From positions 62,001 through 126,000 of the forward strand of contig BCIG01000031.1 in the NCBI GenBank assembly GCA_001599915.1: a stretch of 64,000 nucleotides of DNA, given 5' to 3'. The position numbers and the translations under genes were made by a program. Below are positions 15,661 through 38,995 of this stretch, one piece after another. The notes below the pieces were generated by a model that was not told where the DNA came from, made no database searches, and was given only the letters and a program-made list of their open reading frames with translations. Position 1 is the first letter of the stretch. Each line of letters opens with the position of its first letter. This stretch comes from Symbiotaphrina buchneri (taxonomy: Eukaryota; Ascomycota; Symbiotaphrinales; Symbiotaphrinaceae).

Positions 15661-16818
15661 ATGGCGCTGATGAAACTCAGAAACAATAAGACATGGCCAA
15701 AGACCGGAAAGAGAGCCACGAATACACACGAACACTCAAAATACGTTTTGGATGATGTGGATAGGCTTCTGGCGGCGGGGGCTTTACTTGAGGACGAAGA
15801 CGAAATGGCCCATTTTCAAGGGACGATAAAGCCAGCACTCCTTAGCGTGCAGAGTTTCATCACGAGATCCATGAACTACGGCAGCAGCGGGGTCGCGCCG
15901 GATCACAATGACGAGGCTCTGCCCTCCACTCCCCCAACTCAACCAACATGGAACAGCATGAAGCTATCAAATGGAAATGCGTGGCCAAATACCGGGTCGA
16001 GGGCAACTGATATCGGGGCACACGCGAGATTGGTGGCACGGGATATGGCCAGGTTACTCAGTGCCGGCGCCATTATCGCCGATAAAGAGGAAGCTCGGTT
16101 CTTCAGAGAGACATATCGAGACGCGCTGGCCAGCGTCCTAAGCCTGGTAGGAAAGATCTTCAACAACGAGCCTCGTGGAGGCACACTCGAGTTGGCTTTT
16201 CACGCCGCTAGAACTCCGCAAGCCCTCACCTCGGGTGAGTTCGACCCTGGCAAGATCTATCAGAGCATAGAAGAAGACGATACGGAGTACGGCGATCCCG
16301 CAAGCAAAATGCTAATTGAGGGTATTGATGAGCGGTTGGTGGAGGCTTTCCCCACCAATGACCAACTCTACGACCACGTCGATGATCAGATATACCGCCA
16401 GCTCGGTATAAATATCCATAGGTTGACTAGGGGGGAGGGCGGGCTGGTGGCCCTACAAGCCGCAAATGGAGATCAAGCCCAGATCCTCCGGGATCATGAG
16501 GCCGAATGGGTCGGTGCCTTCGGCGCGGATGCCCGCATATTGACGTTCCGAGTGGATGTCGTGGGAGTTCCGTTAGCCTGGATCGCGTCAATCAGCGACG
16601 CGGACCTGGTCCAGCATCTCCGCGACCAGAACCCGACCACCATCCGGAACTCCCGGATCAGCAAAGTGATAAGGCCAGACGTGAACCCCCGTTCTGGTCC
16701 TCTGAATGTACAAGTCGAACTGGGACTTGTCTTCCCGGTATATCAGGACGCGGCCACGCTCGTCCGCAACCGGGTGGTCTGGCATGGGGAGGATTTTCTT
16801 TGTCGTTGGGTGCTCTGA
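15661..16818 (+). CDS. ORF1-like family member with doubled N-terminal module, no zinc knuckles
   Basis: A single 385-residue exon from an ATG preceded by a pyrimidine-rich leader. It holds two copies of the family's N-terminal helical module (about residues 10-70 and 100-160). Each begins WPxTGxRAT and continues with a His/Asp/Leu helix, a GA turn and a second helix ending in LxSV. An acidic linker and the RRM-like central domain follow (about 220-380), including the family hallmark EAEWVGAFGADARILTFRV. The protein stops right where relatives continue into FPQC and the zinc knuckles (…VVWHGEDFLCRWVL), so the nucleic-acid-binding knuckles are absent. It is the outermost copy and points rightward, against its nearest neighbour. 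Known from the family: ORF1 proteins of Tad/I-type LINEs bind RNA. A host role here is inference. Confidence 0.75.
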   Translation: MALMKLRNNKTWPKTGKRATNTHEHSKYVLDDVDRLLAAGALLEDEDEMAHFQGTIKPALLSVQSFITRSMNYGSSGVAPDHNDEALPSTPPTQPTWNSMKLSNGNAWPNTGSRATDIGAHARLVARDMARLLSAGAIIADKEEARFFRETYRDALASVLSLVGKIFNNEPRGGTLELAFHAARTPQALTSGEFDPGKIYQSIEEDDTEYGDPASKMLIEGIDERLVEAFPTNDQLYDHVDDQIYRQLGINIHRLTRGEGGLVALQAANGDQAQILRDHEAEWVGAFGADARILTFRVDVVGVPLAWIASISDADLVQHLRDQNPTTIRNSRISKVIRPDVNPRSGPLNVQVELGLVFPVYQDAATLVRNRVVWHGEDFLCRWVL

Positions 16819-16914
16819 AAAGCCAGTCTGTCAAAGGACGATGGCATGACTCAAGCAAATTATCATAGCTTGAGACGGGAGGATGCATGCAGAAGCCGCC
16901 GATTGAAACCAGGT

Positions 16915-18327
16915 TCAGAAGTTTGCGTTGTTGCTCGTGTTGAGCTGCTCGTGGTTTTCCGGTACCCCGGCAGAGTGGCCCAATACCAACTCATTGTCTA
17001 TGCTGGTCAGATCATCGCTGGTTCCCGGGGTGGCTCGACATAAAGGACTGGCGGAAAGCGATTTGTTTTGTATGTTGACGGAAGGTCCGTCGACTACACT
17101 TGTTGCATTAGAAAACAATGTCCACGGTGGTGCCCTCTGCCCATTCGTCTTCTGCTGTATTCGAGTCCTCCACCTGCATGCATGATAGAACGCGGGGTGG
17201 TTGCCTTTGCAGTTGACGCAAGTTCTACGGGCCGAAGTATCCTCCCCCAGCAGGCAGTCCTGGTAACTATGATGTTCCGCACAGAAAGGGCAGACGGCAT
17301 CGTTTCGGCAATCTGGGGTAAGATGACCAAACTTCCAGCAAGTCAAGCATTGCGCAATTGCAGGTCCACGTGCCGGGTCATACATCGTGCCCTTGCGATG
17401 AATTCCATGCCAAAACAATCCTTCTGAGATAATCTTGTTGGCGGAAGCAAGGTGGTAAAACTCCAGCAAGAGCGGTAGTCCCCTCCGTGACGGAGACTTC
17501 GATAGCCAGATGGCACTTTTGAGAGAGCTCTCCACTAAAGCTGATCTGTTCTCTTCGCACAGCGTCTGACGCACCGACTCCTCGTGTAGACTGGCTTCCC
17601 TTGCTCCGATTACGGCTAAAACGACGCCATAAGTCAAAATTTGAGCAGCAGGGCCGAGAATGTGAGTCTAACTAGCTTCATGCAGCCGGAGAAGCTCGGC
17701 ATGTTCCGCACAGGACGCATGAAGAGACACATCCCCGTCTGAAAGCAAAGCGACATTACCGACACGGACGTTCCTCAAGGGGCCAATGCTCGATTTTGCA
17801 AGCCCTTTTCCATTGATCCTGTCTTCTATAGACTCGGCCTGATTCTTGCACTTTCCGCTTACGATTCTTGGATCCGTCATCATCACAGTAATTTGGTATT
17901 GTTCACCCTCTGGCCAAGGACGGTCGACGATCATCACATCCGTCATTGGCACGGGTTGCTCCAAACGACTTCGTATATCCGAGGTGTTGTCGACGCCGGC
18001 CGCAGTCAAAGTTTCTTGTGGCAGCAGCTCTATGTGGTCTTGAGCAGGGACCGACAGTTCAACGCCTTCCGCGTGTTGTCGATAGTCTGAAACTCTAGTG
18101 ATGAGCGGCGGCGGTGACAGTGTGACTTCGGTGTTCATATGCTGCTTCAGTATTTTCTCTACAAAATTGGTCATGCTCTCCAAGAGTGGTCTGTAGGTCG
18201 AACTCGGCATTGGTTCGTCCGTCATGGTACGACCCAGCAATTGGTTGCCCTCTGCGCCCAGTTGATAGGCATGCTCCATAGTGTCGCTGGGCTCTACGCC
18301 GACTCGCGGCCATGGTATGTCGGTCAT
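16915..18327 (-). pseudogene. ORF1-like family member interrupted by one in-frame stop
   Basis: One continuous minus-strand frame from the ATG at 18327 (the longer upstream frame begins with GTG) to 16915, broken once by a TAG at 17668-17670. The stop falls exactly where relatives have the conserved Trp of the RRM-like domain (EAEWVGAFG and ESSWVSILG in other copies), so a TGG to TAG change is the simplest explanation. Before it lie the N-terminal module (PWPRVGVEPSDTMEHAYQL, then EPMPSSTYRPLLESM) and a linker. After it come the rest of the RRM-like domain and three intact zinc knuckles (CLTCWKFGHLTPDC, CPFCAEHHSYQDC, CVNCKGNHPAFYHAC). Both halves keep full coding character, so the break is recent, or the stop is read through. 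No intron can remove it without deleting conserved residues. Confidence 0.7.
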
Positions 18328-19487
18328 AATGAAGTTTGGCTGAGCTCTCACCTCTAGATCAGGAGTAGAACAAGTGGCGACGATGCGCGGAGCGCTAGCG
18401 ATGTTGTTGACAGTTCATCGGTCGTTCGGGTTGCGTTAGGGGAGTTGCGCTGGACGCCATCTCATTTCGGCAACGGCGAGCTTGGCAACGCGAAAGCGAC
18501 GCGCCATGCGCGACGCGAACTGGACTTGGTTACACCGCTTTGCTGGACTCAGCTGGAGTGCTCCTAAGACTTTAAACTTCGTGCAACATCAATGTAGGCT
18601 TAGGAAATATCTGCTACATTTCCAAGATGCGACATTTTCTCCTTTGGGCAGCCGCAACGTATGGCTGTGGGTCGTAATGGATACGGAATCCCAGGGTCCC
18701 CAGATTCAAGGAAGCACTTTTCTGGAATGAATTGGATATCGCTGTTGTATTGTAGAACATAAGCCGCACAGAATACGAGCTGATATGAAGTCACAGCTCC
18801 TACCATATTGGATCAGAGGATTTCATATCGTCCTTGAGCTGTCTGACTCAGTACATAGAAGGTCAGCATCTCTGATGGCAATGTGCAGAGGGCAATACCT
18901 GGGTCATCCTGGCCAGTACACACGACAAAAGCTGATTTGACTGCTGTATTCGGGTGCTCGCCGCGGATTATCTTTCTTTCCATATGGCCTGCTGCTATGC
19001 TATCGCTACCTTCCCATTAGTTGCTGACTGAGATACGACCACGCTTTGTACTTCAACGTCCAGAGAACGAATCTTTCGTCGCATTATGGCTGTAGGCATG
19101 GCCCTTGGAGGATGCAAGCACCGAACATCACTGCAAATTGCCTCGGTATCTTCTCCTTGATGGAAAATTGGACGCAAGGAGGTCGGTCTCGTGTGAAGCT
19201 GGGTCCGGATGATCAGTTGTTTTTGTGGTCTGTCCACAAGGCGCTCGGCACGAGCTGCAAACACGGCTTTGAGATGCCGTCGAAAGGCTGTTTGTCTTCT
19301 TGGTCTCGGGGGTATAGGCCGGCAAAAAGCAGCTTCATGGTATTCGCTCAGGATCTGACGGCATGCTGTTCCAAATTGTAGTACTTCTGATATCAATGGC
19401 CTTAGACGTCGGCTCTTGCCGACGACAGCGAGGTTCAAAAATGAGATAGAAAATAAAATATCAATAAAATAAAATTGCAAAAAGCTC

Positions 19488-19530
19488 AGGACCTTGACCT
19501 TCAGTGTAGTACTGAAGGTCAAAGGTCCCT
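19488..19530. repeat. long near-perfect hairpin
   Basis: The left arm, 19488-19505 (AGGACCTTGACCTTCAGT), pairs with the right arm, 19511-19530, around the 5-nt loop GTAGT. All 18 left-arm bases pair, and the right arm has two one-base bulges. An A/T-rich tract (19440-19480) lies directly to its left and tRNA-like sequence to its right. It could be part of a short interspersed element or a small structured RNA. Confidence 0.6.
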
Positions 19531-19555
19531 ACGAAAAACCCGGAGGCTTTTGCAG

Positions 19556-19745
19556 TCAGGAGTTATCCGCCGTGGAGCCTAAGACTCGAACCGCCGACTT
19601 ACCCTTTCGGAGAATTCAAAGCCCAAGACTATGAGTTTCAAGGTGGATTCATGGCTAGCGCTGATAGCAGGTCAGTCTTAGCAACTGCGGCCTTAGATAG
19701 TCCTGCGTCACTAACCACTGCACCACACTCTCCTATTCGTTAGGA
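19556..19745 (-). repeat. tRNA-like composite relic (boxes A and B far apart)
   Basis: On the minus strand this begins GGAGAGTGTGGTGCAGTGG, which contains a box-A-like GGTGCAGTGGTTAG. It ends near 19575 with the box-B-like GCGGTTCGAGTCT followed by AGGCTCCA. The two boxes are about 130 nt apart, too far for a normal tRNA, and the acceptor ends do not pair well. A tRNA-derived SINE relic, or two tRNA fragments side by side, are the likely readings. Confidence 0.35.
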
Positions 19746-20276: not shown

Positions 20277-21893
20277 TCAATCAATCTTCGTCCGCTTGGC
20301 TGGAAGTTCCCCGTCATCCACCGGCTGCGGTGACCTGCAACCGGGTCGTTTGCGGTAAGATTTGGCCACCCAGTCTTTCTCCCAAGCAAAATTGCTACGC
20401 TCAAGAATAAGTCTGCTGGACGGGCCCTTCCATGGTCTACGCTGAAGAGGATAGAGTCGAGTATCACAGCGCTGCCAGAAGTTGCGAAAAGTTGCCAACT
20501 CCGGACAGGTTTCGTCGACGGCAGTGTGCTCTCCGCCACAATTGACGCACCACCTCTTGATAGCCGGATCAAGGTGTGCCCTGCATGCTCGTCTATGATG
20601 TTCACCTCCGCAGTATGAACAGGCTTCATTTCGAATGCATTCGGACGTGGTGTGTGCGACGAGCCTGCAGCATCTCTTGCATTGCGGAAACTCCTCTCCG
20701 GGGGGCGGTCTTCTACAGGCATACTGAGATCCTTGCCAGAAAACGCCGTTACGTATGGCCTCATTTGCACCGCTGGCAGTATAAAAATCGATACACACAT
20801 CTGCGTTCAGACCAGATTTCCTTTGGTTACCTGCCCGTCTACCTTCGTCGAAGTGCCACCGGACTGTTTTAACGTCTGACTTGATGATAAGGTCGCGATT
20901 TTGTATGCAAATGGCGTCCATGAAATCCTGTCGGCCCAAGTTGCGGAGTGCTCGGGATGGTATATTCCTTATGCTAACCGGAAATGTAAGCATCCTCGCA
21001 TTGGGGCCAAAGCCTGCTATCCACAGGCTTTCGTTTTGTCTCAGATAATCAACATCTTCTCCGCACTGGGCATAAGAGACAATGTCGCGATTGCAAAGCA
21101 AGGTCACCGCACCAAGGGGTGGGTGGTGCATGTCCGGTAAGGACCCGCCCACCGTGACTGCAACGCCGTAGGGGATCCCATCTGGATCATTCCAGGACTC
21201 GCCGTTACCTACCACGTAGTCCGAAAACCACCGGTTCTCAATGCCGGTAATCGTGATTTTCAAGTGCTCGTATTCCGGTCCCTCCGGCCACTTTCTTAAG
21301 ATACTGCCGTTTTCGGTCCCTATCGACTCCTCGCCTTTGATGTTGGCTAGTCCAATTTGCTCTTCTGGAGGCTCCGCCTTGATTAGAGCTGCTGGACTGC
21401 TCCTCAACTGTGGATCTGCAGCGTTGGTATTCAAGACCTGATCTTGCTCGGTATTGCTACGCACACCGTTTTCAGGAGACGCCAACCGTCCTCCAGTATG
21501 TTCAACGACCACTGATGCTGGCATAGTCTGGTCCTCGACCCTATTTGCACGATTGTCGTCTCCTTGTTCAAGCTCTGTAAGAGTCTCGGAATTATCTTTG
21601 CCATCCTTTCCTTTCCCATTATGAACGTCTTCACCATCGCCGTCACTCTTGATATTGCTGACGTCCTTGGAGGGGGTCGGCAGAACCTTTCGAATAATCT
21701 GGGCCACGCTCCTTAGCAAAGGCCTAAACTTGGCTTCAAAGAACTCCCTCTCCTTCGTATCGGCTATCATGAGCCCGGCGTCAAGCATCTTGATGACATC
21801 CCCCCTGAGGAGAGTTGCATGCTCCTCGAGACTTTCGGAAGTCCGTCCCACTTCTGGCCATTCGCGGTCGTCTCTTAGCGCAAAGCAGGCCAT
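20277..21893 (-). CDS. ORF1-like zinc-knuckle family protein, full-length
   Basis: A single 538-residue exon starting at the ATG at 21893. The N-terminal module (about 10-70) reads EWPEVGRTSESLEEHATLL followed by a DAGLMIAD turn. A long charged linker (about 75-200) is rich in D, E, K and N. The RRM-like domain (about 200-390) contains the hallmark NESLWIAGFGPNARMLTFPV. It leads into ACRRPPPGEEFPQC and three zinc knuckles (CKRCCRLVAHTTSEC, CSYCGGEHHRRAC, CVNCGGEHTAVDETC; about 400-460). A basic tail ends in a nuclear-signal-like LPAKRTKID. The knuckle spacing (CX2CX4-5HX4C, CX2CX3HX4C, CX2CX3HX6C) matches ORF1 of Tad/I-type LINEs. No RT follows. This is one of the best-preserved copies of the array; RNA or DNA binding is expected. 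Confidence 0.8.
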   Translation of the reverse strand: MACFALRDDREWPEVGRTSESLEEHATLLRGDVIKMLDAGLMIADTKEREFFEAKFRPLLRSVAQIIRKVLPTPSKDVSNIKSDGDGEDVHNGKGKDGKDNSETLTELEQGDDNRANRVEDQTMPASVVVEHTGGRLASPENGVRSNTEQDQVLNTNAADPQLRSSPAALIKAEPPEEQIGLANIKGEESIGTENGSILRKWPEGPEYEHLKITITGIENRWFSDYVVGNGESWNDPDGIPYGVAVTVGGSLPDMHHPPLGAVTLLCNRDIVSYAQCGEDVDYLRQNESLWIAGFGPNARMLTFPVSIRNIPSRALRNLGRQDFMDAICIQNRDLIIKSDVKTVRWHFDEGRRAGNQRKSGLNADVCIDFYTASGANEAIRNGVFWQGSQYACRRPPPGEEFPQCKRCCRLVAHTTSECIRNEACSYCGGEHHRRACRAHLDPAIKRWCVNCGGEHTAVDETCPELATFRNFWQRCDTRLYPLQRRPWKGPSSRLILERSNFAWEKDWVAKSYRKRPGCRSPQPVDDGELPAKRTKID

Positions 21894-22393: not shown

Positions 22394-23344
22394 CTAAGCA
22401 TCCAGGAAAAGCTGTTGCTCCATGAGCGTGGAGGGGCCATCAAGTATCCTCATAACCGTCCGATACAGTGGTGCAACCCATCCGTTTGCGGCCTTCTGGC
22501 GTTCTGAACATTTCTCACTACTCGAGGAATGGCTGCCGCCGCAATTCACACACCTCGGTTGATTGCTGCAGATATCAGGGCGATGATGGGTTCCGCATTG
22601 GTCACAGAGCTGCTTGGAAAGGCATTCCTCCGCAAGATGGCCCAGTTTGAAGCATGTTGTGCATTGCGGGAAGGGCTCTCCTGGAGGAGGCCTACGGCAA
22701 GCCTTCCTCTTGGTCTGCCAGAGTATCCCCCGATTTATAGCCTCATTTGCCTGTGCCGGGTGGTAGAACTCGATGTTAACAAGGGCTTTCATATTGCCCA
22801 GGTCGGGACTGGATCGGGGAATTGTGACTGTCGTCCAAGTTGCTGACTTGACCATGACACGGCCGAAGAACTCCGGGTCGTTTGCTATGAACTCCCCCAG
22901 TAGGTCCTCCGGCGTCATCTCCTGGACGTCCTTGCGCAGTATACCGCTGACTTGGACGCGGTAGGTCCGGATGCTAGCCTGTCTCCCGAGGATCGACACC
23001 CAACTACTCTCCAACTGTCTGAACATCTCTGCCTCGTCGTCGTATGCTGCGTAGAGGACAACGTCTTTGTTCCGAAGGAGAGTCACTGATCCAACTTCTT
23101 TACCCTTTAGCTCCGGCTGGGCGATGACTTTGAGGCGCTTGTTCAGTAACGCCTCGATCTCTTCCGCGGAGTTCCCGCATGTCACGGACAACACTGTCGT
23201 GTTGCATCCAAGGACGGTTATGCGGAGATTGTCGTCCGTGGGCCATTCTGTCCAGAAAGGGGTGCGGATACCCCTCTTTTTCTTTGGGACCGGCAATGGC
23301 TGAGAGGTGGTGCCTTGAGGGACGGAGAGACCTGAGGTGCTCAT
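22394..23344 (-). CDS. ORF1-like zinc-knuckle protein lacking the N-terminal module
   Basis: A single 316-residue exon from the ATG at 23344. It begins with a basic stretch (PVPKKKRGIRTPF) and goes straight into the RRM-like domain (EWPTDDNLRITVLGC to about residue 205, with ESSWVSILGRQASIRTYRV). The FPQC motif and three intact zinc knuckles follow (CTTCFKLGHLAEEC, CDQCGTHHRPDIC, CVNCGGSHSSSSEKC). The C-terminal tail contains LDGPSTLMEQQ, which resembles LDGPSKVMV in the copy at 37832-38995. With that copy and the one at 33843-35347 it forms a recognisable subfamily (AEEIEALLN, KGKEVGSVTLLRNKDVV). I found no N-terminal module in the kilobase upstream, so it is either missing or never present. 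Confidence 0.8.
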   Translation of the reverse strand: MSTSGLSVPQGTTSQPLPVPKKKRGIRTPFWTEWPTDDNLRITVLGCNTTVLSVTCGNSAEEIEALLNKRLKVIAQPELKGKEVGSVTLLRNKDVVLYAAYDDEAEMFRQLESSWVSILGRQASIRTYRVQVSGILRKDVQEMTPEDLLGEFIANDPEFFGRVMVKSATWTTVTIPRSSPDLGNMKALVNIEFYHPAQANEAINRGILWQTKRKACRRPPPGEPFPQCTTCFKLGHLAEECLSKQLCDQCGTHHRPDICSNQPRCVNCGGSHSSSSEKCSERQKAANGWVAPLYRTVMRILDGPSTLMEQQLFLDA

Positions 23345-24308: not shown

Positions 24309-25968
24309 TCAGGTGACCCCCCATACACCAAGGACAGCCTCATGCCTGGCATCTCCGGTGTCCTGTTTCCGCGTCTCTTCCAGTTTCTTGACTCTGCGAA
24401 CCAACAGTCCAACACCAACAGGCCCTATAACTGTGCAGAGCACCGCGGCCCACATGACGATAAGATAGAGTTCGTCAGATCCGGAGAAGATGCCGCGTGA
24501 CTGAGCCACGGACGCAATGAGAAAAGCCACCTCGCCGCGGGCTACCATCGCAAGACCAAGGATTGTGCAGGGATACACGGAAAGCGGCTTTCCTGGTTTC
24601 ACAACGCGGGAAGGCGTTGGCGTTTCGGCCGTTGCTGGAGGAGCGGATGAGCCGGCGGTGCTTGATGATACAGGATAAGGTGTAGCGGATGCAGAGGAAC
24701 CGGGCGGAGCACGTTCACTGAGCTCCATCATACCCGCTCTTCCTTGAGAGCTCGGATATCCCTGGCCTGGATTCTTGCCAACATTCCCATCCTTTGTGAA
24801 GCAGAATCCCAATCGGTATAACTTGACAATCCGTGAGTGCAAACTGGCAGCAGAGCCTGATAGAAAACGGGGTAATCGGACAGAAAAGCGCAAAAGCCAC
24901 AATCCGGTGAGCAGCTTTCCTACCGTCATGAGGATTGCATACACAATACCTTTCCAGACGGTGGACGCGCAGTACCGATGATAGACCTCAACACCACTCA
25001 GTGATACATCCAACGAGTCACGAGGCTGCCCATGATGCTCCTGTTGTTCGGATGATTCCTCTGCTCCATGCGACGCACACGCCGCGGGGTTTGGGTTTGG
25101 GACAGTATCCCACCAGCTGACTGCAGCGCCGGCGAGAAACGCGGCGAAGAGAGGCGAAGCTCCAGCATAGTCCGCTCCAACCACCAAGCCAATCAGCAAC
25201 CCTGTATGTATTACCCATAGTGCTTCCGGCTTCTTCATCTTGTCCGGGACGCGCAGCTGGCCACACATCTTCTCCCAGGCCCAGCAACTGACGACCATAG
25301 CCACGAGCAAACCGATGCTGGCTCCTATTGGTCTCCCTATAGACGCCCCGCTTATCGTTCCAGCCCCACCTCCCAAAGAAGATACGACTTGTATCATGAC
25401 CAGTCCAACCACATCATCCATCATTGCCGCACTTGTCAGCACAACCCCAAGTCTAGTATTGGCGAAGCCGGCGGTGGACAGTATGGCGAAGGTCGTCCCA
25501 AGAGAAGTCGCAGATAGCGCTGCTCCGGCTGCAAAGCATTGTAAAGGAGTCGCGTCCACAAGCCGGGAGAGTACGAATGACAAGGCTATCGGGAGAGATA
25601 TTCCGGTGATCGCGACCGCGGAGGAGAGAGCGAGGTTGGCGAGCAGAGGTCGAAGGGAAGTATGGAGGCCACCTGAGGGTACCAATTGCGTTAGTCACCT
25701 GTGAATTATGCCAGATAGATGCCTTACCCTCATAGACCAGGAGTATTAGCCCGAGATAGCCCAATTGCACGATAGCATCTTCAACACCGGGCCCTAGCCA
25801 GTTCCCCAACGGGGTACCCCAGAAGGTACCGATGAGCACCTGCCCGACAAGACCGCAATATATGAGGCCGTTGAGGAGGCTGTTCACGACATTTAAGATC
25901 AGCAAGAAGGATGTGTTGACGAGGATGGTCGTGATTGTAGGCTCCGCATACGGTAACGACGTTGGCAT
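24309..25968 (-). CDS. Na+/H+ antiporter (cation:proton antiporter family)
   Basis: Two exons (25728-25968 and 24309-25672) joined across a 55-nt intron (GTAAGG, branch CTAAC, acceptor CTCAG), giving 534 residues. The product is a polytopic membrane protein with about a dozen hydrophobic segments. The Na_H_Exchanger fold is seen in GLIYCGLVGQVLIGTFWG, QLGYLGLILLVYEGGLHTSL (the conserved LVYEGGL loop), the unwound-helix region AGAALSATSLGTTFAI and the ion-site segment LTSAAMMDDVVGLVM. The last has the paired Asp typical of electrogenic members. A long hydrophilic loop (about 330-420) carries Ser/Pro-rich sequence before the last helices. Such proteins exchange Na+ or K+ for H+ at the plasma or vacuolar membrane. 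It is the only ordinary housekeeping-type gene inside the ORF1-like array and separates its two groups. Confidence 0.85.
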
Positions 25969-26634: not shown

Positions 26635-27933
26635 ATGAAGCCGTGGCCCGTACTTGACAAAGCGCCTGCCGGCTTTGCTCACCACGAGTCGGTGCTCAGG
26701 CATGATATCCAGAGACTTCTGACGCGTGGTCAAAGCAAGGACCCCATGCCTTATGAGGTTTACAATCAACTTCTGACGAACGTACTGAAATTCTTGGACA
26801 AAGAGCATATTCAGGCGCATAGCCCCGGGCTTCCAGGACCAAATGCTTTCCCGGGATCTGTCAATGGTACGAGTCACGAGAATATCTCTTGCCCTGTACT
26901 ACAAAAAATGCAACAGACTAATCCCTGATCAGATCAGCATGCTCCAGCCATGGCATCCATTACTACTGCAAGCACTGCAAATCCCTCCGGCAACTACTTC
27001 GCTCTGGGCACCGAGGGACCTCTGGTGGAGCTCAGAAACCACCATCGAAGCCCCGATACCGTGAATCCGGATATGGACGCACAGATGGAATCCATGGAAG
27101 GAGACGAGTTGGACCAAGCGAGCTTGGGCGACTCAGATGTCGAAAAACAGCTCACGGCCATTCAAAAGTCTGGCCATGAGGATGAGGACTGGCCTAGACA
27201 CGATAAGCGCATGATCATCGTAGACAAGGTTCATAAAGAGTGGACAACCCATAATGTGGCCAACTTAGACGCACGGGACAATGCCCAAAGGCTGATCGAG
27301 ACTGCTCTCCTCGGCCGCCTGCAGTCTCATCCGGACGCCGCACTTCGCCATGTCAAGTTCCGGCAGATATCTAATCCTAGTTTTCGTCAGGTCTTGCTCC
27401 TGACAGAGGATAAAGACGAGGCTGACATACTGAGGGACAATGAGATTGAGTGGGTCGACTGCCTTGGACCGAAAGCAAGGATCCAATACTCTCGGGTTAT
27501 AGTGACGGGTGTCAATAAGATCCATGACCTCAACGCAGATCTGATCAACAATATGTTAGTGACGGAGAACGACTACTTCCTGAGCGAAGGTCCGGTTCAA
27601 CACACAGGGCGGTTCAAATGGAAAAGGGTAGCAGGGGTAGCAAGCTCGGTGCTGGAGCTGGTGTTCAAGAGTCCGTTCGAAGCCAAGCTGGCCATCTACC
27701 ATGGCGTGATGCTTGCTGGCCGTCAGTACGCTTGCACAGTAAACGATATAGACCGGAAATGTTCTATGTGCTTCCAATACAACCATGAACCGTCCGCCTG
27801 TAGCTATCCAAAAGCTACGCCAACTCTCTCCTCGCAGAAACAAGACAGTGATGTGGAGATGGCATCCAGCAATGTCGTCAAGACTAAACCCTCTCGTATG
27901 TTCGGGTATGGAGGTCGTTCCGTTGGAAACTGA
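26635..27933 (+). CDS. ORF1-like family protein with a single zinc knuckle
   Basis: Two exons, 26635-26866 and 26933-27933, give 410 residues. The 66-nt intron (GTACGA donor, branch GACTAAT, acceptor GATCAG) removes an in-frame TGA, and both exons lie in the same frame. Exon 1 carries the N-terminal module (KPWPVLDKAPAGFAHHES, then DPMPYEVYNQLLTNVLKFL). Exon 2 carries an acidic linker, the RRM-like domain (about 150-340, hallmark DNEIEWVDCLGPKARIQYSRV) and only one zinc knuckle (CSMCFQYNHEPSAC). The second and third knuckles and the FPQC lead-in are gone (the lead-in reads VNDIDRKC). This is the first gene of the rightward group, divergent from the antiporter. The intron placement between module and linker recurs in other copies. 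Confidence 0.72.
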
Positions 27934-28433: not shown

Positions 28434-30682
28434 ATGGCCGGCCGGGATTGGCCCCAGGTTGGCTCCGTCCGCAGAGGCTTAGCCCAACACACCGCGGAGT
28501 TGGACGACGATACGCTCCGACTCTTGGGTTACGCCATCTACCAGGAGCCAATGCCCTTCGACACATACATGCCATACTTGATGAGCGTTGCGGAGCATCT
28601 GAGGAAGACGCGTTTACAGACCCGGATCCACAATGTCAATAATGAGGGTGTGGGTATTCAAGGCAATGACATGAGGCCTATACGATCAACTCCTGCTGGT
28701 GAGGATCATCAGTTGCAGGCCGCCGGCCATGAAGACGTGGACATCAGAGAGGGGACCGAGGCCACAGGTTCCGGGGTGGCCCTCGTGTGCCAGATAAATA
28801 TACGAAGAACAGAGAAGACGTCTCACCACTGCATACTCCAGTGGAAGAAAGCGCCGGAGTGCCACGACCTGGCCCCGCTGCAGCGCCTGGGGTAGAAATA
28901 TGGGCGAAGAGGATGTCTCAGCCACCAAATTCACGAGGAATGGATAAATCCAGATGCATGGACAGGGCATCAGATGAAGAACGTCCAGAGGGGCCTCACG
29001 CTCAACTACGAAATGGAAGCTCCTATGGGCCCCGCATAATGGCCATCGAGCGGCAAGCAACGCCTGATGATGCTGAAAATGGAGCAGGAGGACAACATCA
29101 CCCACACAGCATGAGAAATGGAAATCCTCCACCTGAGCAACAGTTGAGCCTACGTTCTCGAACTCACCTAGTCACTCCTGCAATGCAAGATGACCAGATC
29201 TCCGAAAGCCAACCTGCGAGAACCGGTGATGAAGTGGAAAGCGGCAATCGTACCAGGAGCCGAACCCGACGTGTTGCGGTATCACAAATACGTACCTTAC
29301 AAGGCCAGCACTTCGAGGCAAATCATACCCCGGTAGGCTTTGGTGCGGAATCTTACGGCGACGGGTCCGAATCGGAGCATTTGCAAGAATGTGAAGGTGT
29401 GGGGAACTCATCGGAGTTGGTGAAGGAGGAGAGATATGATGAAAATCATGGGAGCCAAAGAAAGCGAAAGAGAAAGAGCGAAGAAGGTGTAGAACGTCCA
29501 GAACCGGCGATCGAAGTGGTCTACAATATGCCTAGGCGTATCAAGGCCGAAAGAAGTTCAAGCGACGACGACGAACATTCCGACGACGTCTCTGACACGG
29601 CTGATGATGAGGAAGCCACCTCCGACGAAGATGAAGAAGCTACCTCCGACGAAGATGAAGAAGCTACCTCCGACGAAGGTGAGGACGATACATCTAGAGA
29701 GACGGCCACTAGGACCGACGGAGCAGAGAAAGGAATATCCAAATCTGGATCCGGTTGGCCAATGCTCGATGCGTGCAAGATAATTGTTGCTGCAGTGGAC
29801 AGACAGTTGATATCTAAAAGACACCAGAACGATGCTAGAAACTTAGAGCTCTTCCTAAACAAAAGCTTCCGAAAACGCCATGATGGAATCCACGGCGTCA
29901 TTGTTGGAGCAGTCACTATCTTGAAGAACTTCAATATTGTTCTATATGCCAAGGACTCAGTCCAGGCAGATTGTCTCAGGAAGAACGAGCGTGCGTGGGT
30001 GAAGATGCTGGGAGTAGCTGCCTTGATCAGAACTTTCAATGTACTTGTGTCGAAGGTAGCTGAAAGCGTAGCTTTGGTCAAAAGCGACATAGCCACGTTG
30101 AATCGACAGCTGGTGGAAGGCAACACCCTCCTGATCACTACAGCCCCTATCAAGGAAGTGGATAGTCGCCGGTCGCCAGATTCAGTCATTTTGAAATTCT
30201 ACAACCGCGTCGATGCTAACACGGTTATATTGGGACACCTGAGGCTGGGCAGGTTGACGTTCCAGTGTTGCTTGTACCGCGAGCACAAGTTTCCTCAATG
30301 TGGACGCTGCTATCAATACAATCACATCTCGATTGATTGCGAGAACGAATGGCGATGCCCTTACTGCAGTGGATGCCACAGAAAGAATAAGTGCCCTGTC
30401 AAGGCGAATGAATCCTTCCAACCGAAATGCACAAATTGTGACGGCTGCCATGCTGCTTTCGACGAGCGCTGTCCAGCGCGGTCCATCCGGCGTGAAGTTT
30501 ACGAAGCTAAACCTGAGGCAATATGCTTCTCCGGGAGTGTCAGAGCTATCAATGGCACTTCCTCAGAGGAGATTCTATTGCCAGGTCCTATCAACAAACG
30601 AAAGCGGCAAGAAGATGATGACAGCCCCACCCGGCCCGACACCACGGTCACTAACGCGAAGCGGATGAAGGTTGCAGCTTGA
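28434..30682 (+). CDS. ORF1-like zinc-knuckle family protein with acidic repeat
   Basis: The first exon (28434-28698) encodes the N-terminal module: MAGRDWPQVGSVRRGLAQHT, then EPMPFDTYMPYLMSVAEHL. A GTGAGG donor at 28699 is joined to an acceptor at 28751 or 28793; both keep the frame and give 731 or 717 residues. The long linker is basic, then acidic, and contains three tandem EATSDEDE units. The RRM-like domain (about 425-600, with NERAWVKMLGVAALIRTFNV) leads to FPQC and three knuckles (CGRCYQYNHISIDC, CPYCSGCHRKNKC, CTNCDGCHAAFDERC). A KRKRQEDDDSP…AKRMKVAA tail looks like a bipartite nuclear signal. The frame is fully open and well organised, so this copy is probably a working gene. Confidence 0.78.
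29612..29683 (+). repeat. three 24-bp tandem repeats coding for acidic octapeptides
   Basis: Three nearly identical units starting GAAGC(C/T)ACCTCCGACGAAG lie head to tail inside the linker of the ORF1-like gene at 28434-30682. They encode EATSDEDE, EATSDEDE and EATSDEGE. Their antisense strand is also open, so it produces a spurious Ser-rich frame. Confidence 0.85.
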
Positions 30683-31362: not shown

Positions 31363-33117
31363 ATGGCCACAATCTACTGGCCCAGCGTCGGTGAACAACC
31401 TGAGAGCCTCCAAGCCCACGCCAAAGAACTCGAAGCCGACGTACGCAAACTCCTCGGCTATGGAGCGACCGCGAATCCCATGCCCCAAACTGCCTATGGC
31501 CCCCTTCTGCAGAGCGTCCTTGTCTTCATCCACAAAGTACGGAAGCAGCCTGATACGAGCGAGATGAAACCTGCCCTCAAAGCTCTCTCCGAGTCCGCTC
31601 AAGCTCTACGCGCAGAGCTTGTCGCAGTCCTGAGGAAGTCCGGTGATACTTCTCGTGACTTGGATGTGCCCAAGCAGACTTGCGAAACTGTCAAGAAAAC
31701 TTGTGATATTGTCAAGGAGGAAGATTTGTTGTTACTCGACGACGAGGACATGATAAGCTCTTCCGCTTCATCTACATCATGGGGACTAGATGAGCTCATG
31801 GGCACAACTCCGGTTCTTGATAACCATAGTCACAGCATCATTCCTATCTCGGAGGCTACTGCAGTTGGAAAGTCTCTGTCCGACCAGGAGCTCTCAGCTA
31901 TTGTTCATGTCGCCCAGCAGGTAGCTGGGGAGAACGCAAGCGGCACAGTTGTCAAGAATGTCGAAGAAACGCCAAGAGCTCTGTCTCCCCCGAGACCTCT
32001 TGAAAAGGCAGCCTTGCCTGATCTGGCCAGGGTGGAGACTGCCGCAAGCAAGGAAGAAATCATCGAGAGACCGGCAGTAATGAAGACAGTAACCAAGGCG
32101 CCTTCCGCTACTTTCACAACGCCGGAAAAGGCAGCTACGACGGAGTCGACTGGAAGCAACTTTCACGAGAGGAAGGCAACCCAGAACAGCCCAGCTAAGC
32201 GTGGCGGCAGCCCCATCAAGCGCGCCAGAGGTGGCTCCACGTCTTGGCCCAAGGTTGACTTTTGCAAATTCATCATCACAAACACAGACAAAGCACGGAC
32301 CACGGGCCCGAACCTGATTGTTGAAAGCTTGGTCAATGCCATCTTTTCCAGCTCCAGTGATGGTGTACTGGCGCGGTTGCGCATTGGAGGTCTCTCCGTT
32401 ATGCAGAACGGCGATGTCATCTTTTACGCTACCGGCAAGACGCAGTCAAAACAGTTGAGAAAGACTGAAAAACAATGGGTCATCTGCTTTGGTGCAAATG
32501 CAAAGATACAGACCTACGATGTTGTCATTCGCAATATAGCCAGCCGCCAGAACGAACGCTATACCGAGGAGGCACTTCTGATGAAACTGCATGAAGATAA
32601 CATCCACTTGCCAATAACCCGTATGAAGTCCGCCACGTGGGAACAGGGATCGACACCTAAGCAGGCCAAGATTATCCTTTGCTTCTACACCGCGTCGGAT
32701 GCAAACAACGTCATCAAGGAGAAAGTGAAATGGAATGGTGCGGTCCTTGACTGTATGAAACTGGAGTTTGGTGAGACGTTCCTTCAGTGCCCGAAATGCT
32801 GGAAGTTTGGACACGGCAAAGACAAATGCACAGGCGAGGAGAAATGTCCCTACTGCTCCAAGGAACATAATAAGGCCGTCTGCCCTGTCCGCAAAGACTC
32901 CTCACTTGCAAGGTGCTGTGCCAACTGTCACGGCAATCACGAAGCATTCCATAATGGATGTCCAACGAGGAAGAAGTGCAAGTCGGAGTGGGATGCGGAG
33001 CATTATTGTCAGACAGCAGCTTTGTATGTGGAGGATGAGGCTGTCCACGTCGGTCCGGGCAATTCTAAGGTTCAACGCGGCAATCATGGGAAGAAGGCGG
33101 CCGGTGGAGGCAAGTAG
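31363..33117 (+). CDS. ORF1-like zinc-knuckle family protein, full-length, single exon
   Basis: 584 residues from the ATG at 31363. The N-terminal module (about 1-60) has WPSVGEQPESLQAHAKELE followed by PMPQTAYGPLLQSVLVFI. A long Ser/Thr/Glu linker (about 65-285) follows. The RRM-like domain (about 290-465) begins SWPKVDFCKFIITNTDKAR and has TEKQWVICFGANAKIQTYDV. FLQC replaces FPQC ahead of three intact knuckles (CPKCWKFGHGKDKC, CPYCSKEHNKAVC, CANCHGNHEAFHNGC; about 475-540). This is the cleanest example of the whole layout in one exon and the best reference copy for the array. RNA binding is expected from the family; nothing suggests its own mobility, because no RT frame follows. Confidence 0.82.
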   Translation: MATIYWPSVGEQPESLQAHAKELEADVRKLLGYGATANPMPQTAYGPLLQSVLVFIHKVRKQPDTSEMKPALKALSESAQALRAELVAVLRKSGDTSRDLDVPKQTCETVKKTCDIVKEEDLLLLDDEDMISSSASSTSWGLDELMGTTPVLDNHSHSIIPISEATAVGKSLSDQELSAIVHVAQQVAGENASGTVVKNVEETPRALSPPRPLEKAALPDLARVETAASKEEIIERPAVMKTVTKAPSATFTTPEKAATTESTGSNFHERKATQNSPAKRGGSPIKRARGGSTSWPKVDFCKFIITNTDKARTTGPNLIVESLVNAIFSSSSDGVLARLRIGGLSVMQNGDVIFYATGKTQSKQLRKTEKQWVICFGANAKIQTYDVVIRNIASRQNERYTEEALLMKLHEDNIHLPITRMKSATWEQGSTPKQAKIILCFYTASDANNVIKEKVKWNGAVLDCMKLEFGETFLQCPKCWKFGHGKDKCTGEEKCPYCSKEHNKAVCPVRKDSSLARCCANCHGNHEAFHNGCPTRKKCKSEWDAEHYCQTAALYVEDEAVHVGPGNSKVQRGNHGKKAAGGGK

Positions 33118-33842: not shown

Positions 33843-35347
33843 ATGAGGGACGACGGCACCCCAGCACCCAAAGTGGAGTTCGGGGCCGGTGCGGAGGATC
33901 TAGGCGAGCATCTCGATCTCATTGATGCACAGGCAGATCAGTTCGTGGAAACCTGCACGTATACCACAAAATTACCTCAGGATGTGGCAGACAAGATGAT
34001 CGAGCCTTTTATACAGACGTTGAGGGACGCGCTCGCGAAAGTGCGCCGTGAACGGGCTCCCGTCGAGTCGAGCAAGTAACTATTTAGGAAGCAGCATCTC
34101 GCGCATGAATAAAACTGAGGAACTGTAGGGGGCAGTCACATAAACGGCAATTATCCACGCAGAACCATGAGAAGACGGACTCGCCCAGCAGACGGAACCT
34201 CAACAGCCAGTATCTGAACAGAACCGAGCTATCAAAACCGCTGACGGCTTTTTCGCAAACACCCCACAAATCTGGACTCAAAGCGCTTTCGCCTCAAGGG
34301 TCTTCACCCCATAAAAAAGAGCCTATCAAAAATTTGAAGCCACAGAAACTTGCACCTAACGAGAGTGCGTCTCAAAGGCCCCCTCCATCGAAGACAGATC
34401 CTCGTGGAATGCCCGTTACAAAGGGTGGTCTCAAGTCAGACTGGCCCATGGACGAAGGGCACCGCATCAACATAATGAAAGTTAGTCGGACTTTTTTGTC
34501 CGCTCAGTGCCAGAACTCGGCGAGCAAAGTAGAGGATGTGCTAAATGAGCACCTGAAGAACCATCAAGACCCCGAAATAAGGGGCAAACTTGTTGGAAGG
34601 GTAGCTATCCTGAAGAACCAAGACGTTGTCGTCCACGCAGCCTATCGAAATCATGCCGAAATATTGAGATCCACATTCGTTAAGTGGAGCGGGGTGTCTG
34701 GGGGCGGCGCTGTCATCAGGCGCTACATGATCGAAGTCAAAGACATACCGATAAATGACGTTGGCGGACTGGACTCCAAGCAGTTCCTGGGGAAGTTGAA
34801 GGAGTTCAATCCTCTAATACTCGGCAATAGAGCCGCGGTCGACTATGCCGCATATAGCTGGGGGTCTACTAGGGGATCCAGCGATAGCCGCATTAAAAAG
34901 TTCGCCAAGCCGGCCACGATTGCCTTCCATCTCCCCTCTGCCGCCAACAAAGTGATTGATGAAGGTATCATGTGGGACCACAAGAAGAAAAAGTGTCTGG
35001 TGCCCACTCCTGGCCTGCGGTTTCCCCAATTCAGGAAATGCTGGGGTCTCTACCATTTTGAAGAGGATCGCAATTGCCAACTGGTGTGCAAGAATTGTGG
35101 GGTAAATCACCGTGTCCGGCACAATGAGAAATGCCCCGATCCGCCCAGATGTGTCAACTGCGGCGGAGATCATCCCTCCATTGACGAAATGTGTCCTCAG
35201 CGTCAAGCGGCCAAGCAGAATGGAACGGCGGTGCCCGATATCCAACGCAGTTGCACATTCAGGACGGCCCTTCTGATAAGATGGCATGGCCTCTATGATA
35301 TTGCCCGTCTGCTTGTTTCGGTGGTCCACTTCCACCAACCACCATGA
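33843..35347 (+). CDS. ORF1-like zinc-knuckle protein, first knuckle defective
   Basis: Two exons, 33843-34075 and 34129-35347, give 483 residues. The 53-nt intron (GTAACT to TGTAG) links an N-terminal-module exon (FGAGAEDLGEHLDLIDAQ, then LPQDVADKMIEPFIQTL) to a linker and RRM-like exon. The frame upstream of the RRM-like domain is open back to the acceptor, which supports the join. The RRM-like domain begins DWPMDEGHRINIMKV and belongs to the same subfamily as the copies at 22394 and 37832 (VEDVLNEHLKNHQDPEIRGK). In the first knuckle the leading Cys is Phe (FPQFRKCWGLYHFEEDRNC). The second and third are intact (CKNCGVNHRVRHNEKC, CVNCGGDHPSIDEMC). The hallmark Trp is kept (FVKWSGVSGG). The last 30 residues look unlike relatives and may be intron read-through. 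Confidence 0.72.
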
Positions 35348-36558: not shown

Positions 36559-36931
36559 ATGAGCGGAGAAAACAAACCCTCTGCGTACCGCTACGGCCGG
36601 CAATCAGACGACCTTGAAGAGCATCTCGCCTTCGTTGAGGCCGACTGCAACGCAGCCCTCACCGATCCCAGACTCAAGACCGCTCTCCCACCCGATATCT
36701 ACGACGCTCTTGTGAAGACGATGCACAGTGAACTCGAAGCCCTGGCAAAGGCCAAAGCTATGTTGGAGGATGATGCAGTTGCGGACTCAGCACCTGATGA
36801 TAAGCAGACGGATGGGCTTGCAAATGGGTAGGTCTTCCTCTGCCGATTTTGCCTTGCAGGTGACTAACCATGGAGTTCATAGGGTCAAAGCATCTGCGGC
36901 TCATACGTCTCCTCTTCCCGCGAAGCTATAA
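36559..36931 (+). CDS. stand-alone N-terminal module of the ORF1-like family
   Basis: Two exons (36559-36827 and 36883-36931) are joined by a 55-nt intron with GTAGGT donor, GACTAAC branch and CATAG acceptor, giving 105 residues. The first exon is the family's N-terminal module: YGRQSDDLEEHLAFVEADC, then LPPDIYDALVKTMHSELEAL. It is closest to the module of the gene at 33843. The second exon gives a short tail (VKASAAHTSPLPAKL) and a stop. Beyond the stop, another canonical intron (GTGAGC to TCACAG, about 36941-37018) and an open frame to 37317 suggest that the transcript once continued, or continues as UTR. No RRM-like or knuckle domain follows before the next gene. It may be a truncated paralogue or a small partner protein. 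Confidence 0.6.
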
Positions 36932-37831
36932 GAAAATGATGGTGAGCAACCGAATTATCTCCGCCCAAGGAGGATCAATCATATTACTTCAGCTGTGCTA
37001 ATTTGCAATGTGTCACAGATACAGCGGAGAAGCTGCAACCATCTGGTGCTGTTGTGCATTTGGACCTACCTGACTCCTACAACGACCATTCGGAGGCCAA
37101 GAACACTGGGTACGGAAATGGGTTGCTACTCTCAACTGTGATGCGCTTGATCATAGCTACCTTATCACGCTATTCCCTCCGTGAAAAGAGCTTGGGAATA
37201 GAGGCTCTAATTATAATGGACAAAGAATGGTACCCTGGGACGTCTACTTCATCTTCGTACTTTGTTTACGGACCTCATGTCTCCCCACCATGTGGCTTCG
37301 GCAGTGGTTGTAGATAGATTATGCCTAAGACCAGTCGGCCCTCTTAGATCAGATTTCCCTTCGGATACAGCGAACAGTAGTCGTTGAAGAAACGCCAACT
37401 GACTCTTGAAGGCTCGATTATGGGAGACTGCTGAAGTTCAATTCAAGGAAGAGCCCCTTCGATCACTGGAGACAAGTCTGGTACGGGGGTGAAAGTGTCC
37501 CTTCCAAGACTGCATGTAGATCATTAGTCTGGCCCGGAAAGCAGGACTGATCAAGGTACACAACAAATCCGAGTGTTACTGACAGAGTACTTTATTCTGA
37601 AAAAGACGAATACGGAAAGGTCGTCGAAGCCCCCTCCACCGATCAGAAACAAGTTATATTCACTGTATCCGGTGGTCGCGTCAAGGACGAAGCGGTCTTC
37701 CTCCCAATGCCACTGGTGGAAACCATGAGCTTACCCACTTCAAGAGCATTTCGATCATCAAGACGCTCACCTACTCCATTACAATCCTTACGGGCGCGTT
37801 CGCAGCTGACCGATTCCGAATCAATTCAACC
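36932..37831. other. intergenic region with possible decayed exons
   Basis: Contains a canonical intron-like segment and an open frame up to 37317, possibly the 3' remainder of the gene on the left, and the diverged repeat segment at 37401-37556. Nothing else is recognised. Confidence 0.4.
37401..37556 (+). repeat. diverged segment shared with 39311-39473 (copy D)
   Basis: Aligned by eye, this shares GACTCT, an A-rich middle, GGTGAAA-GTGTCC and CTGCATGTAGATCATTAGTC with CTGCATGTAAATCACCAATC in the other copy, with small gaps. The right part looks like the tRNA-derived head seen at 36220-36352, but no box B survives. Confidence 0.5.
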
Positions 37832-38995
37832 ATGAGCTCAGGACAGTCCTCGTCCGTCCCTGGCCACTCGCGACAAGGCCTTGATCGTCGGGCGGTTGCG
37901 CTACACGCCCGGCTTCGTCAGCTTATACAGATCGAGCTCCTAGGGGATAATAGTGACCTTATACGAAAGGATAAGGTCATACCGACGCTAGAGTTTATAG
38001 ACCAATGGTTCAGTTCATACAACGGTGTTCCGCAGGAGGGTACCCAGAACCATACTCAGCTCCGGCAAAATCTCGAGCCCGAGAGTCAGGTTGAGGATCC
38101 TCGCTCGTCAAACAATGTTCCAACGGATCCACGACAGGGAGTCGAGATCGACCATATCAATGACTGGCCAAGCGAGCCCTCTCTTCAAATCATCGTAACC
38201 AATGTCGATATGCGCCTGCTAGATATCGCATGCGAATTCTCGGCAGAAGAAGTAGAGGCGGTACTGAACACCCACCTCCTTCAGCACGAAGACCCCGAAA
38301 TGCGTGGGAAAAGGGTCGGAGGGGTCACTATCCTACAAAACCACGACATCGTTATGTACGCAGAGACTGTCGCGGAAGCAAAGGTACTGAGATCACTCTG
38401 CTCCAAGTGGATGCGAGTTCTTGGCGGCAGAACTAGGATCCGTACATTTCCAGTCATGGTCTCGGGAATCTCTCTCAACGATGTCGGCGGAACCACCGAT
38501 GGCGAATTCTTCGCGCAGCTGGTGGGCTATAATCCCGCCCTTTTGGGAGACGGGAAAGCACAGTCAGCTTTTTATGGGCGGAAACCGACGAGGACCACTC
38601 CTTTGTCGGTCTGGGCGAGAGTCACCGTGGAGTTCTACCTCCCGTCACAGGCAAACCTGGTCATCCAACGAGGGCTGGTCTGGAATGATGTGCAGAAAGA
38701 ATGCTCCAGCGGAGAACTGTTCCCGCAATGCGAGCATTGCTGGAAGCTAGGTCACACAAAGGACCGCTGTACCAGGCCTAAGGTGTGCAACCGCTGTGGG
38801 GAGAGCAAGCACAAATTCCAGTGCCAAAGGGAGAGAAGATGTGTGAATTGTCAGGGCACACATAGCGCCAATAGCCGTGACTGCTCGCACCGTAGGAGGG
38901 TGCAGCGTGAGTGGAGACTGGGAAGACACCCGACGGAGTGGCTTGTTTTGGATGGGCCTTCGAAGGTTATGGTACCATCCACCACTGCGAATTAG
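37832..38995 (+). CDS. ORF1-like zinc-knuckle family protein, short form
   Basis: A single 387-residue exon from the ATG at 37832. The N-terminal module (about 15-65) is diverged (LDRRAVALHARLRQLIQIEL…TLEFIDQWFSS) and lacks the WP motif. The RRM-like domain (about 110-290) begins DWPSEPSLQIIVTNV and contains CSKWMRVLGGRTRIRTFPV. Then come LFPQC and three intact knuckles: CEHCWKLGHTKDRC, CNRCGESKHKFQC and CVNCQGTHSANSRDC. The tail has LDGPSKVMV, as in the copy at 22394 on the other strand. It is the last copy of the rightward group. Related repeat segments lie on both sides (37401-37556 and 39311-39473). Confidence 0.8.
   Translation: MSSGQSSSVPGHSRQGLDRRAVALHARLRQLIQIELLGDNSDLIRKDKVIPTLEFIDQWFSSYNGVPQEGTQNHTQLRQNLEPESQVEDPRSSNNVPTDPRQGVEIDHINDWPSEPSLQIIVTNVDMRLLDIACEFSAEEVEAVLNTHLLQHEDPEMRGKRVGGVTILQNHDIVMYAETVAEAKVLRSLCSKWMRVLGGRTRIRTFPVMVSGISLNDVGGTTDGEFFAQLVGYNPALLGDGKAQSAFYGRKPTRTTPLSVWARVTVEFYLPSQANLVIQRGLVWNDVQKECSSGELFPQCEHCWKLGHTKDRCTRPKVCNRCGESKHKFQCQRERRCVNCQGTHSANSRDCSHRRRVQREWRLGRHPTEWLVLDGPSKVMVPSTTAN

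What the first reader, a model, noticed from the sequence alone, without database searches (positions are those of the whole stretch)
15661..38995. Local array of ten diverged LINE-ORF1-like zinc-knuckle genes with no reverse transcriptase
Ten genes in 23 kb are related by a shared layout: N-terminal helical module, linker, RRM-like domain with a conserved (E/S)xxWVxxxGxxAxIxTxxV stretch, FPQC, and three zinc knuckles with the spacing of Tad/I-type LINE ORF1. Nine carry the RRM-like domain and one is the N-terminal module alone. I found no RT or endonuclease frame, no poly-A end and no target-site duplication next to any copy. The copies differ too much to be recent insertions, yet nine are open, and four carry introns, which retrotransposed copies would lack. 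This points to DNA-level amplification of a captured ORF1 gene under host use, perhaps in RNA binding or in restraint of LINEs.
Basis: partly seen in the sequence, partly recalled or inferred. Interest (0 to 1): 0.85.

Follow-up and report, generated by a model that had tools for sequence, protein, structure and literature searches.

The report
Tamed retrotransposon ORF1 gene array
A fungus carries a cluster of ten very different genes, nine of them built on the RNA-binding part of a jumping gene without the enzymes that make it jump, and the marks of selection suggest that the fungus keeps them for a use of its own that is not yet known.

Summary
The array is real and best read as a host gene family derived from a LINE ORF1. 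All 36 of 36 pairs of the nine main domains match (E<1e-3). The main domain is predicted as two RRM-like units (pLDDT 86.8) before zinc knuckles. It is homologous to ORF1 of six LINEs that I fetched, each with a long downstream frame: hhalign E 1.6e-22, RRM part alone 1.6e-9, BLASTP to 3e-13. A LINE ORF1 query hits only this array in the 23.4-Mb genome, 6 of 6 places. No live LINE enzyme was found, only one ruined ORF2 on another contig and a weak second hit. Seven of the nine main domains, tested against the six LINEs, group apart (91/92). Against broken copies at seven other places dN/dS is 0.27 (0.22-0.33); wrong frames give 1.08 and 1.41. Function is untested; LINE restraint or RNA handling are guesses. 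Known precedents: L1TD1 and EKA.

The parts
15661..16818 (+). g1: two N-modules in tandem plus RRM-like domain, no zinc knuckles
   Evidence: pieces of this subtype at C3, C5, C26, C31:1.3 kb
16915..18351 (-). g2: N-module, RRM-like domain, three knuckles; one in-frame stop at a conserved tryptophan column
20277..21893 (-). g3: N-module, RRM-like domain, three knuckles, basic cluster at the C-terminus
22394..23344 (-). g4: RRM-like domain and three knuckles, no N-module seen
24312..25685 (-). sodium/hydrogen exchanger gene inside the array (not a family member)
   Evidence: PF00999 E 2.5e-22
26635..27933 (+). g5: N-module frame, likely intron from 26867 to 26932 (or 26947, equal score), RRM-like domain, one knuckle
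28434..30682 (+). g6: N-module frame (28434-28895) and main frame (28787-30682, three knuckles); joining intron not convincing
31363..33117 (+). g7: N-module, linker, RRM-like domain, three knuckles in one open frame of 584 codons
33843..35347 (+). g8: divergent N-module frame (33843-34079) and main frame (34334-35347); donor at 34076 possible, weakly supported; knuckle 1 has lost a cysteine
36559..36831 (+). g9: divergent N-module alone, likely intron 36828-36882
37832..38995 (+). g10: RRM-like domain and three knuckles; its N-terminal part is not shown to be an N-module; sequence used for the structure model

Best explanation
A LINE with a type-I ORF1 (RRM domains followed by CCHC knuckles) gave its ORF1 region to this fungal lineage, most likely once. 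In most members the captured piece is joined to an N-terminal two-helix module. The gene was copied at DNA level into an array whose members are kept under protein-level selection, while the LINE itself died. Shown: homology to LINE ORF1, no live LINE enzyme found, grouping apart from the sampled LINEs, purifying signal against relics, intact copies found only in the array. Inferred: that the proteins bind RNA through the RRM pair and knuckles, that the N-module lets members pair or oligomerise, and that short members (g9, module alone; g1, no knuckles) act as partners or brakes of the full ones. For use I guess at an RNP-forming RNA-binding family: general RNA handling about 0.4, restraint of LINEs by co-assembly with ORF1p (as Gag-derived Ty1 restrictors do with Gag) about 0.3.
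For: hhalign of the array (9 rows) against six LINE ORF1s: probability 99.5, E 1.6e-22, 203 columns; RRM part only E 1.6e-9, score 70.3 against at most 19.7 in 60 column shuffles; BLASTP down to 3.2e-13. Of the six, ORF2 frames of L068 and L099 have EN and RT by Pfam (L068 also RNase H); L090, L092 and L105 have downstream frames with an F-x-DD box; that of L088 is cut by the contig end and shows no box. A LINE ORF1 query against the whole genome: 6 of 6 hits in the array. RVT_1: 13 hits; against reference frames 11 of 13 match Ty3/gypsy, one is the locus whose frame I read as telomerase, one (L021) stays unclassified. Exo_endo_phos_2: 0. LINE ORF2 queries: one wrecked copy at C12:229649-231142 with 28 stops in AT-rich DNA. 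dN/dS 0.27 (0.22-0.33), 797 codons. No RIP bias between array genes and relics: C>T rate 0.107 at CA, 0.156 at CG. Foldseek best NONO/SFPQ tandem RRMs, E 8.7e-5. Array on one side of a branch, 91/92, 88% of 200 bootstraps. A relic at C31:29.99-30.55 kb lies 2.7 kb from a copy of window 10.34-10.59 kb, as a DNA-level duplication could leave.
Against: No expression data and no orthologues. dN/dS was measured on BLAST-found pieces, biased to conserved parts, and cannot separate selection in the host from selection in a once-active element. The array grouping is below the starred threshold and rests on 7 of 9 main domains and 6 LINEs; a tree of the nine alone was unresolved and joined long-branched g5 with g6. 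The whole-length TM to NONO/SFPQ is only about 0.3. The N-module may exist in LINEs not sampled, and g10 and g4 do not show it. g2 (stop), g5 and g8 (lost knuckles) look decayed, and g6 and g8 lack a convincing join, so part of the array may be dying.
Confidence: 0.8

Rival explanations
1. Ordinary LINE debris: several old LINE insertions in one place whose ORF2 parts have decayed.
For: The main domain is truly LINE ORF1-like, and one dead LINE ORF2 exists in the genome.
Against: LINE insertions lose the 5' end first (established knowledge), so ORF1 without ORF2 nine times is the wrong way round. No ORF2 match in the window. The ten RT remnant loci measured have 19-38% GC, while nine array genes measured there have 51-55% and long open frames. 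No poly-A.
Confidence: 0.06
2. A non-autonomous ORF1-only element (like HAL1 or the telomeric HeT-A of flies, both recalled) that moves with enzymes of another LINE.
For: ORF1-only units in an array plus partial copies at eight other places.
Against: Both orientations, 19-39% identity, no poly-A; array at 77.7-101.0 kb of a 321-kb contig without an exact (TTAGGG)4 match, while other contigs have them; no living LINE found to supply enzymes; likely introns in two members. One relic (C31:1.3 kb) holds the 5' part of g1 with 33 nt before its start, not a 5'-truncated copy.
Confidence: 0.07
3. The reverse or an older history: a host family with RRM pair and knuckles that shares an ancestor with LINE ORF1 or even donated to it.
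For: Members are deep: 5 of 7 end branches exceed 1 change per column; the N-module was not found in six LINE ORF1s.
Against: Type I ORF1 is reported from I, Jockey, R1, Tad1, plant L1 and L2 clades (PMC4120745, Background), with the same three knuckle spacings in two animal elements, so the LINE side is far wider; the family was seen here in one genome only.
Confidence: 0.07
4. Secreted effector genes, as EKA of powdery mildew arose from LINE ORF1.
For: Same kind of source; clusters of divergent copies are common among effectors (general knowledge).
Against: No signal-like hydrophobic N-terminus by eye; basic clusters that could be nuclear signals in g3, g4, g7 and g6, g8, a motif count only; no raised dN/dS. 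EKA: over 1,350 homologues, with LINE copies at 6.5% of the genome (PMC4641428, abstract). The fungus and its lifestyle are unknown to me.
Confidence: 0.05

Closest known systems
Type I ORF1 proteins of Tad1/I/Jockey-group LINEs
   Same: RRM-like domains directly before CCHC knuckles with spacings CX2CX4HX4C, CX2CX3HX4C, CX2CX3HX6C; significant sequence homology
   Different: No ORF2 partner; an N-module in 8 of 10 members not found in six LINE ORF1s; intact copies in one place
L1TD1 of mammals (PMC4161310, passages seen; PMC11925450, abstract)
   Same: Host gene made from a LINE ORF1, kept without ORF2; proposed genome defence; reported to associate with L1 ORF1p
   Different: L1TD1 comes from the L1 ORF1 and shows positive selection; here type I ORF1, ten members, purifying signal; PMC11925450 reports that L1TD1 helps retrotransposition, against a simple restraint model
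EKA (Avrk1/Avra10) family of Blumeria (PMC4641428, abstract and passages)
   Same: Fungal genes taken from a LINE ORF1 with a zinc-finger-like part
   Different: EKA: over 1,350 homologues, LINE copies 6.5% of the genome, sites under positive selection; here one array, almost no LINE found, dN/dS 0.27
Drt2 and p22/p18, Gag-derived Ty1 restrictors of yeast (PMC12530519, abstract)
   Same: A retroelement structural protein turned against its source; functional analogue for the restraint guess only
   Different: LTR-element capsid fragment, not LINE ORF1; no homology claimed

Membership tests
Type I LINE ORF1 protein | At least one RRM directly upstream of a CCHC knuckle | tested here: met
   model with two RRM-like units, Foldseek to RRMs; at least one knuckle in 8 of 9 main domains, three in 6 of 9
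Type I LINE ORF1 protein | Sequence homology to ORF1 of LINEs with EN-RT | tested here: met
LINE element | ORF2 with endonuclease and RT next to ORF1 | tested here: not met
   no ORF2 match in the window; one ruined ORF2 on another contig
LINE element | 3' poly-A or simple tail | tested here: not met
   longest A-run 5 in 600 nt after each of ten members; other simple tails not tested
LINE element | Target-site duplications | not tested
   no clear ends to test
Domesticated LINE ORF1 gene (L1TD1 kind) | ORF1-derived coding sequence under protein-level selection without ORF2 | tested here: met
   dN/dS 0.27, 797 codons, four members (g1, g3, g8, g10) against relics; other six members have no relic to test
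Domesticated LINE ORF1 gene (L1TD1 kind) | Expressed host protein with orthologues at a syntenic place | not testable with these tools
   no fungal relatives or RNA-seq held
EKA effector family | Homology to Avrk1/Avra10 | not tested
   EKA sequences not fetched
HeT-A/HAL1-like ORF1-only element | Similar copies, head to tail or dispersed, with poly-A | tested here: not met
   both orientations, low identity, no poly-A

The most novel reading that the evidence does not exclude
A LINE ORF1 captured once and fused to a new pairing module became a diversified locus of ORF1-like RNA-binding proteins that poison LINE RNPs by co-assembly, each paralogue fitted to another LINE lineage, with short members (module alone, RRM without knuckles) as regulators; the near absence of LINEs from this genome is its result.
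Probability: 0.2. Interest if true: 0.85.

Novelty: new variant of a known kind. Interest (0 to 1): 0.62.

Why it matters
Few host genes are known to be made from a LINE ORF1: L1TD1 was called the only one from L1 (PMC4161310, passages), and EKA is a fungal case. A multi-gene array from the type I ORF1, with an added module in most members and a purifying signal, in a genome where no live LINE was found, would be a further and different domestication. It makes a question testable: whether a fungus uses ORF1 copies to restrain LINEs beside RIP, or as RNA-binding proteins. My ten literature searches listed no such array; they cover open-licence papers only.

Tried and rejected
Pfam on ten frames of the members and on each row of the alignments gave nothing over a cut-off. 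PDB by profile gave only knuckle-like matches at E 0.23 or worse and, for the N-module, a designed protein at E 0.004. Foldseek on the N-module: best E 0.96. BFVD: nothing at E<=0.001.

Relatives elsewhere: g10 against viral contigs and g7 against genome contigs found none. A knuckle pattern in viral contigs gave five low-complexity or broken matches. In genome contigs it gave 48 stretches; a script counted 63 protein-level matches in them and printed 24 low-cysteine ones from 23 loci. I looked closer at 12 loci and used six (L068, L088, L090, L092, L099, L105). Left out of the 12: L084 (ORF1 with a FADD frame, odd third knuckle), L089 (no RT seen, bacterial-looking genes on the contig), L069, L073, L091 (other retroelements by eye), L064 (short). 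That LINEs in bacterial bins are contamination is inference.

A mistake mended: I translated RT loci from one strand only, so those found on the minus strand could not be read there; one search classified all 13 by tblastn instead. I had also counted g10's first part as an N-module; one search does not support it.

The tree of the array alone was unresolved. For the LINE tree I left out g1 and g5 (longest branches, no or one knuckle). In the pooled dN/dS I dropped one overlapping relic piece (g1 against L046 at 972), and the 61-nt C24 piece was not used. EKA-like effector, ORF1-only element and LINE debris were rated low, as given under rivals.
Full report
What was checked. The window is G000:C31:62001-126000 of a 23.4-Mb, 82-contig genome. 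Ten family members lie at 15661-38995. Nine share a main domain: 36 of 36 pairs have BLASTP E<1e-3. The N-module is clear in g1 (twice), g2, g3, g5, g6 and g7. A profile of those seven copies finds g9 at E 3.5e-4 and g8 at E 0.01, ahead of the best of 312 decoy frames (1.3), but g10 at E 38, so g10 is not supported; none was seen by g4. That makes 8 of 10 members. g1 is on plus, g2-g4 on minus, g5-g10 on plus, with a sodium/hydrogen exchanger gene between g4 and g5. The double-knuckle pattern occurs four times in the window against none in 100 shuffles.

Three knuckles in 6 of 9 main domains; one intact in g8, one in g5, none in g1. Of four introns, two have good support: g5 from 26867 (acceptor 26932 or 26947, equal score) and g9 36828-36882. 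Six of ten members lie in one open frame; g5, g6 and g8 need a join, and g2 holds an in-frame stop.

Structure. AlphaFold2 on g10 with eight relatives gave mean pLDDT 86.8. The order of elements fits two RRM-like units, though the border strand at 91-99 serves one or the other, not clearly both. Foldseek placed the tandem RRMs of NONO and SFPQ first (E 8.7e-5, whole-length TM about 0.28) and single RRMs with TM to target up to 0.61. The N-module is predicted as a two-helix hairpin, pLDDT 85.9, from ten rows including g10, without a convincing match.

Is it LINE ORF1? A pattern scan of prokaryote genome contigs caught LINEs, most likely eukaryotic contamination. Six ORF1s were aligned. Pfam finds RVT_1 and Exo_endo_phos_2 in the two ORF2 frames tested, L068 and L099. 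L090 has a 1347-codon frame that reads as EN-RT-RNase H by eye; L092 and L105 have downstream frames with an F-x-DD box; that of L088 is cut by the contig end. Array against these: hhalign E 1.6e-22 over 203 columns; RRM part alone E 1.6e-9, score 70.3 against at most 19.7 in 60 shuffles; knuckles alone E 2.1e-12; N-module no match, score 11.3 against shuffles up to 11.7. BLASTP reaches 3.2e-13. ORF1s of Drosophila helena and of locust elements carry the same three knuckle spacings (passages), and type I ORF1 is defined as RRM followed by CCHC, Tad1 included (Background section of PMC4120745).

Is a LINE present? RVT_1 gave 13 matches in the genome. By tblastn against a Ty3/gypsy frame, three LINE ORF2 frames and the telomerase frame, 11 of 13 are Ty3/gypsy, one is the locus that I read as telomerase, and L021 stays unclassified. 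Exo_endo_phos_2 gave none. ORF2 of L068 found one place, C12:229649-231142, with 28 stops, in DNA of 20-28% GC over most of its length with RIP-like TA/AT ratios and no ORF1 match of note near it. ORF2 of L090 found the same place and a weak one on C25, E 0.02. ORF1 of L088 found the array only, 6 of 6 places. These searches score only the best candidates, so absence is not proved.

Copies outside the array. Eight places hold broken pieces: C26, C5, C31:1.3 kb, C31:30 kb, C21, C3, C54 with its near-identical C77, and a 61-nt match on C24. None is open at full length. Three of the eight hold pieces of two members (C26, C5, C31:30 kb). Between array genes and relics there is no CpA excess of C>T changes: 0.107 at CA, 0.097 CT, 0.116 CC, 0.156 CG.

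Selection. For g1, g3, g8 and g10 against pieces at seven of the eight places, dN/dS is 0.28, 0.22, 0.25 and 0.27; pooled 0.27 (0.22-0.33) over 797 codons. The same alignments read in the two wrong frames give 1.08 and 1.41. Differences by codon position are 143, 101 and 256. The pieces were found by BLAST, which favours conserved parts, and the other six members could not be tested.

Descent. With seven array members and six LINEs, the array is one side of a branch, support 91/92, 88% of 200 bootstraps; g4, g8 and g10 group (87/87) with g3 next (94/96). This fits one capture but does not prove it. The tree of all nine was unresolved.

Mechanism. Shown: LINE ORF1-like coding regions, protein-level constraint, a local array, near absence of LINEs. 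Inferred: RNA binding, pairing by the N-module, roles of the short members. The closest functional analogues are L1TD1, which associates with L1 ORF1p and is reported to help, not block, L1 (abstract), and Drt2/p22, which poison Ty1 assembly (abstract). Purifying selection fits a steady function better than an arms race, so LINE restraint is one of two guesses.

Verdict. A real and unusual array, most likely a domesticated type I LINE ORF1 gene family. The kind is known; the variant is new as far as ten searches of open-licence papers tell. No expression, species name or orthologues were available.

Noticed in passing
L068, L088, L090, L092, L099, L105 (GTDB contigs titled as bacteria): Contigs in bacterial genome bins hold eukaryotic-type LINEs with ORF1 and downstream frames, most likely contamination.
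   Followed up: partly
L089: A type I ORF1-like frame of 364 codons lies on a contig with bacterial-looking heme-synthesis genes (by eye) and no RT seen; chimera or something odder.
   Followed up: no
L044:2987-3546 (C31:30 kb): One relic joins a g10-like 5' part to a g8-like middle part, as if parts were swapped between paralogues; a copy of window 10.34-10.59 kb lies 2.7 kb on.
   Followed up: partly
C54 (L027:1-6072) and C77 (L026:1-6071): The two small contigs share 6 kb at 99.9% identity in opposite orientation, with a g3-like relic beside fragments that look Ty3/gypsy-like by eye.
   Followed up: partly
L024 (C13:5-15 kb): A gene that reads as telomerase reverse transcriptase (by eye, with an RVT_1 hit) lies about 9 kb from the start of contig C13.
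   Followed up: no
window 51844-52767 and 61842-62969: Two FAD-binding monooxygenase-like genes 9-10 kb apart, about 71% identical in DNA over short stretches.
   Followed up: no
window 33843-34079 and 36559-36831: The N-modules of g8 and g9 form a divergent pair (BLASTP 3e-6; 94/95), so the stand-alone module may have come from a g8-like gene.
   Followed up: partly
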